This document shows, piece by piece, positions 16,803 through 59,482 of a stretch of DNA of 64,000 nucleotides. Positions within the stretch are counted from its first letter, which is position 1; each line of letters begins with the position of its first letter. The stretch is from a virus. Location: positions 1 to 64,000 of IMG/VR virus record IMGVR_UViG_3300024308_000302. One strand, given 5' to 3'. A program made the position numbers and the translations under genes. The notes under the pieces were generated by a model. The model made no database searches. It saw only the letters and a list, made by a program, of their open reading frames with translations, and was not told the DNA's origin.

Positions 16803-17513
16803 TCAGTAACGAATTTGAACTTGTTCGGTTTCTTTATTGAATGAGTGCCTAACAACGTGTGGCATATCTTTAGTTTCTTCCTTGAAAATATGACGAAGTT
16901 CTCGCTGCAAGTTTTCAAGTTCTTTGACAAGTCCATGAACTTGATTGTTCAACTTAGAATCATCAACTCGTTTTTTAAGAAGAGTATAATATGCGTCCCG
17001 TTTCTGGCGAAGAGTATCTTTAGTAACATCAATTTGAGACTTCAATTTGTTTACTCGATCAAGATAAGGAGCCTTGAAAGAGCGGACAGCAGAATCATTC
17101 AGTTTCGAGCTTTGAATGATATTGAAGATGCGAACAATGTTTTCGGTGGTAGGGTTACTCAAAAACTCAGTGATAAGGTGCTTAGCAGTAGGAATATCAA
17201 ATTCCAAGGAATAATCGACTTTACCACGAAGCCCAACACCAGCACGTACAGTTGGTGTAGCACGGTCAGTATAGCTGAAAGCCAAAGAAATAGTGTTCAC
17301 GAAACGTTTATGACTGCCAAGCTCATGATAGATACCACCAAACCCCAAAATAGCAACATAATCAAAAGTCACTGGTTTGGAAGTGTAGACATTTCTGCCA
17401 ACGAAAGTGTTACCACCTTGTTTACGATTGAGTTCTACAAAAGTAAACCCTGGCAAGGTTTTGAACTGAGTCATCAAGGGTTTCAGGACTTGCATTGGGG
17501 TTGTGTTTTTCAT
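16803..17513 (-). CDS. hypothetical protein with C-terminal coiled coil, 236 aa
   Basis: Unknown. An N-terminal ~120-residue globular part (VGRNVYTSKPVTFDYVAILGFGG) is followed by long helices with coiled-coil character (residues ~150-215). The SD is weak (AGAGC). No terminator hairpin is obvious at its 3' end. Confidence 0.75.
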   Translation of the reverse strand: MKNTTPMQVLKPLMTQFKTLPGFTFVELNRKQGGNTFVGRNVYTSKPVTFDYVAILGFGGIYHELGSHKRFVNTISLAFSYTDRATPTVRAGVGLRGKVDYSLEFDIPTAKHLITEFLSNPTTENIVRIFNIIQSSKLNDSAVRSFKAPYLDRVNKLKSQIDVTKDTLRQKRDAYYTLLKKRVDDSKLNNQVHGLVKELENLQRELRHIFKEETKDMPHVVRHSFNKETEQVQIRY

Positions 17514-32780: not shown

Positions 32781-32806
32781 TTAAGACTGCATCTTTAGTT
32801 CACCTC
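32781..32806 (-). other. minigene unit: SD-N7-AUG CAG UCU UAA
   Basis: GAGGTGA (32800-32806), seven bases, then ATG CAG TCT TAA (32781-32792): a predicted fMet-Gln-Ser peptide. It lies between the gene at 32849-33160 and the terminator at 32722-32750, so it is presumably read from the promoter at 33192-33221. The flanking GTGCCC before the SD matches the other units. Confidence 0.7.
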
Positions 32807-36357: not shown

Positions 36358-36383
36358 TTAAAACTGCATCGGTAGTTCACCTC
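36358..36383 (-). other. minigene unit: SD-N7-AUG CAG UUU UAA
   Basis: GAGGTGA at 36377-36383, ATG CAG TTT TAA at 36358-36369, spacer seven bases. It is the last element before the terminator of the tRNA-Arg/tRNA-Leu operon. Confidence 0.72.
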
Positions 36384-36454: not shown

Positions 36455-36486
36455 TTAAAGTTTATGCTGCATTATTGGCTCACCTC
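36455..36486 (-). other. minigene unit: SD-N7-AUG CAG CAU AAA CUU UAA
   Basis: GAGGTGA at 36480-36486, then ATG CAG CAT AAA CTT TAA at 36455-36472; spacer seven bases. It lies 44 bp downstream of tRNA-Leu copy 3. Confidence 0.72.
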
Positions 36487-58735: not shown

Positions 58736-58760
58736 CAAAAAAGCCACCCGAAGGTGGCTC
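58736..58760 (-). terminator. intrinsic terminator
   Basis: GAGCCACC-UUCG-GGUGGCUU hairpin plus six U, ending the minigene-array transcript. Confidence 0.88.
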
Positions 58761-58762
58761 TT

Positions 58763-58970
58763 TATCTGAATTCTTCACAAGGCGGCATGATAAATGTGCC
58801 ATTTAATGAAAACCTTGCTCCAATCGCACCACTCTTTATATATATGAGATCTGCAAGATGCGATTCACTTCACTCATATCCACAACAGCTAAGTTCAGTT
58901 AAGGGGGCCTGTCGTGGTCAGCCATCACCTTAAATACATCATCATAATTAATCAAATATAAAATAATTAG
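58763..58970 (-). ncRNA. structured non-coding 3' segment of the minigene transcript
   Basis: No supported gene. A 9-bp stem (58857-58865 with 58822-58830) encloses a CTC/GAG hairpin, and TAAATG/CATTTA (near 58802) forms another. A short frame ATG GCT GAC... (near 58928) overlaps its own GGTGATG, so translation is unlikely. Read from the promoter at 59454-59482. Confidence 0.45.
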
Positions 58971-58973
58971 AAG

Positions 58974-59000
58974 TTAGTTCTGCATCGGCGGTTCACCTCC
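58974..59000 (-). other. minigene unit 5: SD-N7-AUG CAG AAC UAA
   Basis: GGAGGTGA (58993-59000), a perfect eight-base match to the anti-SD, then seven bases and ATG CAG AAC TAA (58974-58985). Last unit of the array. Confidence 0.75.
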
Positions 59001-59079
59001 CGGCACCCAATTAATTAGTAGGGGTTAATCGGCAATCTTAATCAAATTAATAGTTTCAAAATTATATAAGTTAGTCAAC

Positions 59080-59102
59080 TTACTGCATCGGTAGCTCACC
59101 TC
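59080..59102 (-). other. minigene unit 4: SD-N7-AUG CAG UAA
   Basis: GAGGTGA (59096-59102), seven bases, ATG CAG TAA (59080-59088): a two-codon message. Confidence 0.75.
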
Positions 59103-59174
59103 TGGCACTCAATTAAGTAGTGTGGAAGTCAAATTTGTTTCTAAGATTAATCAATAATAGGTTATCAAATTAAC

Positions 59175-59201
59175 TTAGTACGGCATTGCTAGCTCACCTC
59201 C
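59175..59201 (-). other. minigene unit 3: SD-N7-AUG CCG UAC UAA
   Basis: GGAGGTGA (59194-59201), seven bases, ATG CCG TAC TAA (59175-59186). The only array unit with a second codon other than CAG, apart from the AUG-stop unit. Confidence 0.75.
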
Positions 59202-59286
59202 GGGCACTTCATTAAGAGTATCAATCGGTTTATAAAAAAGGTATTGCAATCAAATATTCTAAATTAATCAAGTCTATAATTTAAGT

Positions 59287-59312
59287 TCAATGCTGCATGG
59301 GTAGCTCACCTC
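59287..59312 (-). other. minigene unit 2: SD-N7-AUG CAG CAU UGA
   Basis: GAGGTGA (59306-59312), seven bases, ATG CAG CAT TGA (59287-59298). Confidence 0.75.
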
Positions 59313-59391
59313 GGGCACTTGCATTAATGTGTTCGGTTTAGGCTATTCTAACAAATTAATCAATAAAATAAAAGTTTTAATTTACTGAGTT

Positions 59392-59411
59392 TTACATTTT
59401 TAGCTCACCTC
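59392..59411 (-). other. minigene unit 1: SD-N7-AUG UAA
   Basis: GAGGTGA (59405-59411), seven bases, ATG TAA (59392-59397): start codon immediately followed by stop. First unit behind the promoter. Confidence 0.75.
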
Positions 59412-59453: not shown

Positions 59454-59482
59454 ATAATATCAAAGAGTCACAAACCTGTAAA
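59454..59482 (-). promoter_or_regulatory. strong sigma70 promoter with CATCAAGACGA box
   Basis: TTTACA-17-TATTAT followed by CACATCAAGACGAGA; drives the minigene array. Confidence 0.85.

What the first reader, a model, noticed from the sequence alone, without database searches (positions are those of the whole stretch)
58974..59411. Tandem array of five two- to three-codon minigenes
Five ~100-nt units each carry GAGGTGA (two of them GGAGGTGA, a full anti-SD complement), exactly 7 nt, AUG, then a stop after 0-2 codons (AUG-UAA, AUG-CAG-CAU-UGA, AUG-CCG-UAC-UAA, AUG-CAG-UAA, AUG-CAG-AAC-UAA). One strong sigma70 promoter and one terminator enclose them, with no normal gene. SD, spacing and AUG are conserved while the codons before the stop vary, so selection appears to act on initiation followed by rapid termination. 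Lambda bar minigenes (AUG-AUA) poison translation through peptidyl-tRNA drop-off; this array could work similarly, or act as an anti-SD sponge. I know of no described system like it.
Basis: partly seen in the sequence, partly recalled or inferred. Interest (0 to 1): 0.92.

Follow-up and report, generated by a model that had tools for sequence, protein, structure and literature searches.

The report
Phage array of start-stop minigenes
A large bacterial virus and its distant relatives carry short RNAs studded with very strong ribosome start signals that stop again after zero to a few codons, which looks like a deliberate way of catching ribosomes rather than making protein.

Summary
The array lies on the minus strand (58974-59411) of a 290-kb phage record. 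Five more units sit elsewhere in the same genome, and 16 sit in six other records (five large IMG/VR phage contigs and a phage-like contig in a MAG). All 26 units have the strong SD and an AUG: GAGGUGA-N7-AUG in 25, one with a 1-nt deletion. An in-frame stop follows within three codons in 25 of 26, against 5 and 2 of 26 in the other two frames. A scan that required neither AUG nor stop found the core outside long reading frames only in this family, always as a minigene. Three features were missed: a conserved GUGCC...CYA context, a weak AU-rich hairpin just after the stop, and a pseudoknot RNA at the end of each array. Four relatives encode ribosome recycling factor (RRF); in two it lies about 0.6 kb from the array. 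Translation of these start-stops is well supported. What the array does is inferred: most likely it acts in trans, trapping initiating ribosomes and shedding short peptidyl-tRNAs, like a multiplied lambda bar. Transcript protection in cis is the main rival. I found no described system like it.

The parts
59454..59482 (-). sigma70-type promoter TTTACA-17-TATTAT of the array
   Evidence: Followed by CATCAAGACGA (59448-59438), an initial transcribed sequence shared by 14 strong promoters of this genome, including tRNA operons.
59392..59411 (-). unit 1: GAGGTGA-N7-ATG-TAA (start-stop)
59287..59312 (-). unit 2: GAGGTGA-N7-ATG-CAG-CAT-TGA
59175..59201 (-). unit 3: GGAGGTGA-N7-ATG-CCG-TAC-TAA
59080..59102 (-). 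unit 4: GAGGTGA-N7-ATG-CAG-TAA
58974..59000 (-). unit 5: GGAGGTGA-N7-ATG-CAG-AAC-TAA
59360..59388 (-). imperfect AU-rich hairpin just 3' of the unit 1 stop (comparable hairpins at 59293-59246, 59178-59141, 58974-58927; none found for unit 4)
   Evidence: pairing statistic above 0/150 shuffles over 21 units, 0/300 for 16 divergent representatives; for this genome's 10 units alone 12/300.
58880..58917 (-). hairpin CCACGACAG...CTGTTGTGG between the array and the tail RNA
   Evidence: read from sequence
58778..58817 (-). tail RNA: outer stem (CAAGG/CCUUG) enclosing a likely H-type pseudoknot (UAAAU/AUUUA and GGCA/UGCC); also ends the arrays of G001-G005 and lies downstream of one G006 unit
   Evidence: The pseudoknot pairing and its GGC/GCC-GAC/GUC covariation were read by eye from six sequences.
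58736..58759 (-). intrinsic terminator AGCCACC-TTCG-GGTGGCT-TTTTTT ending the roughly 710-nt transcript
   Evidence: Sequence. One search lists the same stem for the + strand only.
36455..36486 (-). unit 6: GAGGTGA-N7-ATG-CAG-CAT-AAA-CTT-TAA, after tRNA-Arg(UCU) and tRNA-Leu(UAA)
36358..36383 (-). unit 7: GAGGTGA-N7-ATG-CAG-TTT-TAA, directly before a terminator
32781..32806 (-). unit 8: GAGGTGA-N7-ATG-CAG-TCT-TAA, after a 111-aa ORF and directly before a terminator

Best explanation
This is a tandem array of translated start-stop minigenes carried on a non-coding phage RNA that acts in trans on the translation machinery. Steps: (1) a strong promoter makes a ~710-nt RNA that carries no gene. 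(2) Each unit binds a ribosome through a 7-8 nt SD and starts at AUG. (3) The ribosome meets a stop at codon 2 to 4 (in one unit codon 6). (4) Because the ORF is so short, the SD/anti-SD duplex is never broken, so the ribosome is held, re-initiates in place or sheds a very short peptidyl-tRNA instead of being released normally. (5) The AU-rich hairpins and the terminal pseudoknot keep the otherwise ribosome-free RNA intact. (6) Several such RNAs at high level lower the free ribosome and initiator-tRNA supply and bias translation away from weak-SD (host) messages; a phage RRF in some relatives tunes release. Shown by sequence: parts of 1-3 (signals, no gene, in-frame stop conservation) and presence of hairpin and tail. 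From published work on minigenes: 4. Inferred: expression, 5 and 6.
For: In-frame stop conservation: 25/26 versus 5 and 2 of 26 in the other frames. AUG is invariant, and a control scan without AUG or stop shows that every non-coding copy of the core is a minigene. Extended SDs of this kind are nearly reserved for minigenes in this genome. No ORF overlaps any of the 10 units, several units sit directly before terminators with nothing to regulate downstream, and arrays occur as separate transcription units in 6 phages. The promoter is of the class that drives the tRNA operons. RRF genes occur in four relatives, about 0.6 kb from the array in two. Published: RRF, EF-G and RF3 promote peptidyl-tRNA drop-off (PMC8012679); strong SD, short length and UAA increase minigene toxicity (PMC8708949); with ORFs under 6 codons the SD duplex stays intact after termination and the SD pulls ribosomes back (PMC9955659).
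Against: No expression, ribosome occupancy or toxicity data exist. The aligned SD-AUG spacing is 9, longer than the phage's own mode of 5-6, which is not the optimum for fast initiation. GUGCC and CYA are conserved and a bare minigene does not need them. The SD is only moderately unpaired in predicted folds. Ten units are few against a cell's ribosomes unless the RNA is very abundant. RRF was not found in the 290-kb or 437-kb records, so RRF is not obligatory.
Confidence: 0.45

Rival explanations
1. Cis-acting protection: ribosomes parked on the start-stops shield AU-rich non-coding and tRNA transcripts from RNase E, so the units are stabiliser modules for the tail RNA or tRNAs.
For: Natural minigenes in the LEE4 and axe-txe leaders act in cis, by or possibly by blocking nuclease attack (PMC8708949). 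Units are found in tRNA and ncRNA transcripts, and all array transcripts end in the same pseudoknot RNA. Hairpins after each stop suit a stability role.
Against: Three units (36486, 36383, 32806) lie at the 3' end, directly before a terminator, with no RNA of note downstream. Simple protection needs an SD, not an early in-frame stop, and does not call for three to five copies.
Confidence: 0.27
2. Sensor or attenuator: ribosome behaviour on the start-stops (initiation rate, recycling, RRF level) controls maturation or read-through of the downstream RNA, tRNA or RRF gene.
For: Array next to RRF in G002 and G005. A second minigene, MS[SG]DAS*, followed by a terminator-like hairpin, precedes RRF in four relatives. 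Units precede an ncRNA and tRNA-Arg(UCU) in G000 and G006.
Against: A terminator separates array and RRF, in G001/G003 they are about 4 kb apart, and units at 3' ends control nothing downstream.
Confidence: 0.13
3. The repeat is a binding site for a phage or host protein or small RNA (GUGCCnGAGGUGARCYA plus hairpin), and the AUG-stop is incidental.
For: GUGC and CYA are conserved as well as the SD and AUG, and a hairpin follows.
Against: Frame-specific stop conservation with varying position and stop type is unexplained. No Rfam family matches.
Confidence: 0.12
4. Chance or decayed repeats without function.
For: The region is AT-rich, where stops are frequent (12% of triplets).
Against: The same units occur in seven records whose shared proteins are mostly 23-45% identical; stop excess in one frame only.
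Confidence: 0.02

Closest known systems
Phage lambda bar minigenes (barI, AUG-AUA-UAA)
   Same: Natural phage-encoded ORF of two codons with an SD, ending in UAA; a two-codon ORF of this kind is expected to shed peptidyl-tRNA.
   Different: As recalled, bar is not a tandem array and uses the rare AUA codon. Here the codons are none, CAG, CCG or GAG (plus NNY), with tandem units, a conserved GUGCC...CYA context, downstream hairpins and a pseudoknot tail, as a separate transcription unit.
Leader minigenes of axe-txe and EHEC LEE4 (espADB)
   Same: Short ORF with a strong SD whose ribosome occupancy can protect RNA.
   Different: Those precede and regulate a protein gene in cis; these arrays precede none.
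STAB-SD 5' stabilisers of Gram-positive mRNAs (from memory)
   Same: An SD without a gene recruits ribosomes.
   Different: STAB-SD has no conserved AUG or in-frame stop and sits once near a 5' end.
Translation-redirecting genes of huge phages (tRNAs, RRF, synthetases; PMC7162821)
   Same: Same genomic setting: tRNA operons, TrpRS and RRF.
   Different: That paper lists tRNA, tmRNA and protein translation genes; the passages read mention no minigene RNA.

Membership tests
Toxic minigene (lambda bar type) | ORF of about 1-6 codons with a functional SD | tested here: met
   0-4 sense codons after AUG, 7-8 nt SD (presence of SD tested, function not).
Toxic minigene (lambda bar type) | Early in-frame stop under selection | tested here: met
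Toxic minigene (lambda bar type) | Last sense codon AUA as in barI | tested here: not met
   none, CAG, CCG, GAG or NNY codons.
Toxic minigene (lambda bar type) | Peptidyl-tRNA accumulation and toxicity in Pth-deficient cells | not testable with these tools
   needs experiment
Anti-SD sponge | Only SD conserved; AUG and stop dispensable | tested here: not met
   AUG in all 26 units, frame-specific stop
Leader minigene regulating a downstream gene in cis | Protein gene directly downstream in the same transcript | tested here: not met
   no ORF overlaps; terminators close the array and the 36.4-kb and 32.8-kb units.
Leader minigene regulating a downstream gene in cis | Ribosome occupancy protects RNA from RNase E | not testable with these tools
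   needs RNA half-life measurement
Known structured RNA family (Rfam) | Match above gathering score | tested here: not met

The most novel reading that the evidence does not exclude
A new class of phage non-coding RNA: a ribosome trap built of tandem start-stop minigenes, each with an extended SD, a conserved GUGCC...CYA context and a stop-proximal hairpin, ended by a pseudoknot RNA and, in some phages, paired with a phage-encoded ribosome recycling factor that sets how trapped ribosomes are released.
Probability: 0.35. Interest if true: 0.92.

Novelty: new variant of a known kind. Interest (0 to 1): 0.82.

Why it matters
A 2023 paper on RRF says the only natural SD-led minigene its authors could find is the lambda-related dipeptide one (PMC9955659). 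Here are 26 units, most of them in tandem, conserved across large phages whose proteins have diverged to about 25-45% identity. If they work as inferred, phages use translation initiation itself as a weapon or a valve, with RNA alone, and the array becomes a compact natural tool for studying ribosome recycling, peptidyl-tRNA drop-off and re-initiation. The finding also makes the long-open question of what lambda bar is for testable in a system where selection is visible.

Tried and rejected
Near-identical phages in GenBank: none found. Rfam: no match. Fixed hairpin sequestering the SD (GGU...ACC, GCUC...GAGC): present in some units only, not consistent. Upstream hairpin ending in AAGUG: pairs in several units by eye, but the mean z of the upstream region is about 0, so not claimed. 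Phage Pth or release factor in this record: none. Terminase and Gp23 searches to classify the phage: no match in G000 or the five IMG/VR records (for Gp23 not even the controls rang). Global TAG recoding: no; TAG ends 24 of 364 long ORFs. Extra pattern scans of IMG/VR gave hits in GC-rich phage genes with no unit and other unrelated contigs. L137 holds a possible remote start-stop near tRNAs (E 0.055), left open.

Full report
OBSERVATION. On the minus strand of the window, between a TTTACA-17-TATTAT promoter (59482-59454) and a T-tailed hairpin (58759-58736), lie five units with start-to-start spacing 98-112 nt. Each carries GAGGTGA (GGAGGTGA in two), 7 nt, ATG and a stop after 0-2 codons. No ORF overlaps them.

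MORE UNITS IN THE SAME PHAGE. The window is bases 1-64000 of a 290,157-base virus record, G000. Five more units lie in it, all on the minus strand: two after tRNA-Arg(UCU) and tRNA-Leu(UAA) just before a terminator (36486, 36383), one before another terminator (32806), and two at about 183.94 and 183.76 kb upstream of a structured RNA and a tRNA-Arg gene. In a near-identical tRNA-Arg/tRNA-Leu operon at about 169 kb the two units are absent and an ordinary ORF follows. So the units are modules that come and go.

RELATIVES. A pattern requiring GTGCC-n-GAGGTGA-n-CTA-n3-ATG but no stop found five IMG/VR contigs of 152-437 kb, each with one array of two or three units. A scan of bacterial genomes gave a phage-like contig binned into a Flavobacteriaceae MAG (L067, G006) with two single units, AUG-UAA and AUG-UGA, both upstream of an ncRNA and tRNA-Arg(UCU). 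Proteins shared with G000 are mostly 23-45% identical (G006: 34-77%), while the RNA core is nearly invariant. G005 has one unit fewer than G002, and its second unit joins the left half of one G002 unit to the right half of the next, so copy number changes by recombination (sequences). BLASTN against GenBank phages gave no relative.

IS THE READING FRAME REAL? Over 26 units the stop falls within three codons of AUG in 25 in the AUG frame, against 5 and 2 in the other frames. Sixteen representatives under 55% alike give 15 against 3 and 2, binomial p 4e-7. The stop sits at codon 2, 3, 4 or 6 and is TAA (18 of 21), TGA (2) or TAG (1). Because units are homologous, the p-values are optimistic, but the frame contrast is not easily explained otherwise. 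A control scan with neither AUG nor stop in the pattern (GTGCCnGAGGTGARCTA) returned 21 contigs. The 7 sites in the five AT-rich family contigs are all minigenes; the 16 other sites lie inside open frames of 185-1568 codons in contigs of 49-70% GC, none with ATG at that place.

THE SD. In G000, GAGGTGA occurs 15 times on the minus strand and 10 of these are minigenes; all three GGAGGTGA are minigenes. Most long ORFs have only a 4-5 nt SD match. Where ordinary genes use GAGGTGA, the AUG follows after 3 nt; in minigenes after 7. In aligned terms the spacing is 9 against a mode of 5-6. This longer spacing is a conserved property and suggests that holding, not speed, is selected (inference).

(a) GUGCC before the SD and CYA in the spacer are conserved. 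(b) An imperfect AU-rich hairpin starts a few nt after the AUG: pairing statistic above 0 of 150 shuffles for 21 units, 0 of 300 for 16 divergent ones; for G000 alone it is weaker, 12 of 300. Energies are only -1 to -6 kcal/mol. (c) Each array in G000-G005 ends in a small RNA with an outer stem around a likely pseudoknot, also found downstream of one G006 unit. The inner helix changes GGC/GCC to GAC/GUC and the outer stem changes in concert (GGUG/CACC, CAAGG/CCUUG, GGUUAAGG/CCUUAACC); this was read by eye. Single-sequence folds recover the outer stem but are significant only for G006. (d) The array promoter belongs to a class with CATCAARACGA just downstream of the -10 element, 14 copies on the minus strand, which also drives tRNA operons. 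(e) G001, G002, G003 and G005 encode ribosome recycling factor (Pfam E about 1e-50), about 0.6 kb from the array in G002/G005 and 4 kb in G001/G003; TrpRS directly precedes the array in G001/G003. RRF was not found in G000 or G004, both possibly fragments.

MECHANISM. Published work gives the pieces. Minigenes shed peptidyl-tRNA, helped by RRF, EF-G and RF3 (PMC8012679). A strong SD allows re-initiation without dissociation and raises toxicity, as does UAA (PMC8708949). With ORFs under six codons the SD duplex stays intact after termination and pulls the ribosome back (PMC9955659). The units fit these rules: extended SD, at most four sense codons after AUG, mostly UAA. I therefore commit to a trans-acting trap (0.45). 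Protection in cis (0.27) is the main rival, weakened by units at transcript 3' ends and by the conserved stop. A sensor or attenuator (0.13) is raised by the RRF neighbourhood. A protein or sRNA site (0.12) is kept open by GUGCC and the hairpin.

MEMBERSHIP AND NOVELTY. It works like lambda bar, but it is not a bar minigene: the AUA codon test fails and toxicity is untested. It is not a plain anti-SD sponge (AUG and stop conserved) and not a gene leader (no gene follows). I rate it a new variant of a known kind, with a 0.35 chance that it is a new class of phage RNA.

LIMITS. All data are sequence only. The host is unknown; the nearest TrpRS found is Acinetobacter-like (69%), which only suggests a gammaproteobacterial host for the relatives. 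Phage identity rests on the IMG/VR record and matches to a T4-type RNA ligase and a virion protein; no terminase was found.

Noticed in passing
L126:7894-7911 +, L127:7895 +, L128:7892 +, L129:7892 +; L014:9891 - (G000 about 153.5 kb): A second minigene, MS[SG]DAS*, with SD TAAGGAG(GT), conserved at peptide level through synonymous changes. In four relatives it precedes RRF with a terminator-like hairpin between; in G000 it precedes a different small ORF.
   Followed up: partly
L016:410-475 - (G000 about 183.8 kb): Two more short ORFs with SDs between two units, encoding MKEEFDDI* and MKDEHDDL*.
   Followed up: no
window 40290-40225 -; L016 about 210-300 -; L107 upstream of its tRNA-Arg: A recurring structured RNA with core GCGGUGWCGYGGGS in tRNA operon leaders; no Rfam match for it.
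   Followed up: no
window 35300-35105 - and 39835-39675 -: Two structured-looking RNAs between tRNA genes with complementary ends (CCAGAAC/GTTCTGG; GCTGTTG/CAACAGC) and no Rfam match.
   Followed up: no
L015:16340-16414 and 17349-17423 (G000 about 180 kb): Two tRNAs with anticodon CUA (amber suppressors), though TAG still ends 24 of 364 long ORFs.
   Followed up: partly
L014:19441-19517: ARAGORN reports a tRNA with a four-base anticodon (TTTG).
   Followed up: no
window 36835-36707 -, 35610-35484 -; L067 about 7090-6964 -; L015 about 6114-5986 -: Small basic protein family starting MQGS (about 42 aa) at the head of tRNA operons; function unknown.
   Followed up: no
L137:2989-3008 +: In a 102-kb IMG/VR contig, a promoter-driven GAGGTGA-N7-ATG-TAA about 1 kb upstream of three tRNAs; possible remote relative, model E 0.055.
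   Followed up: partly
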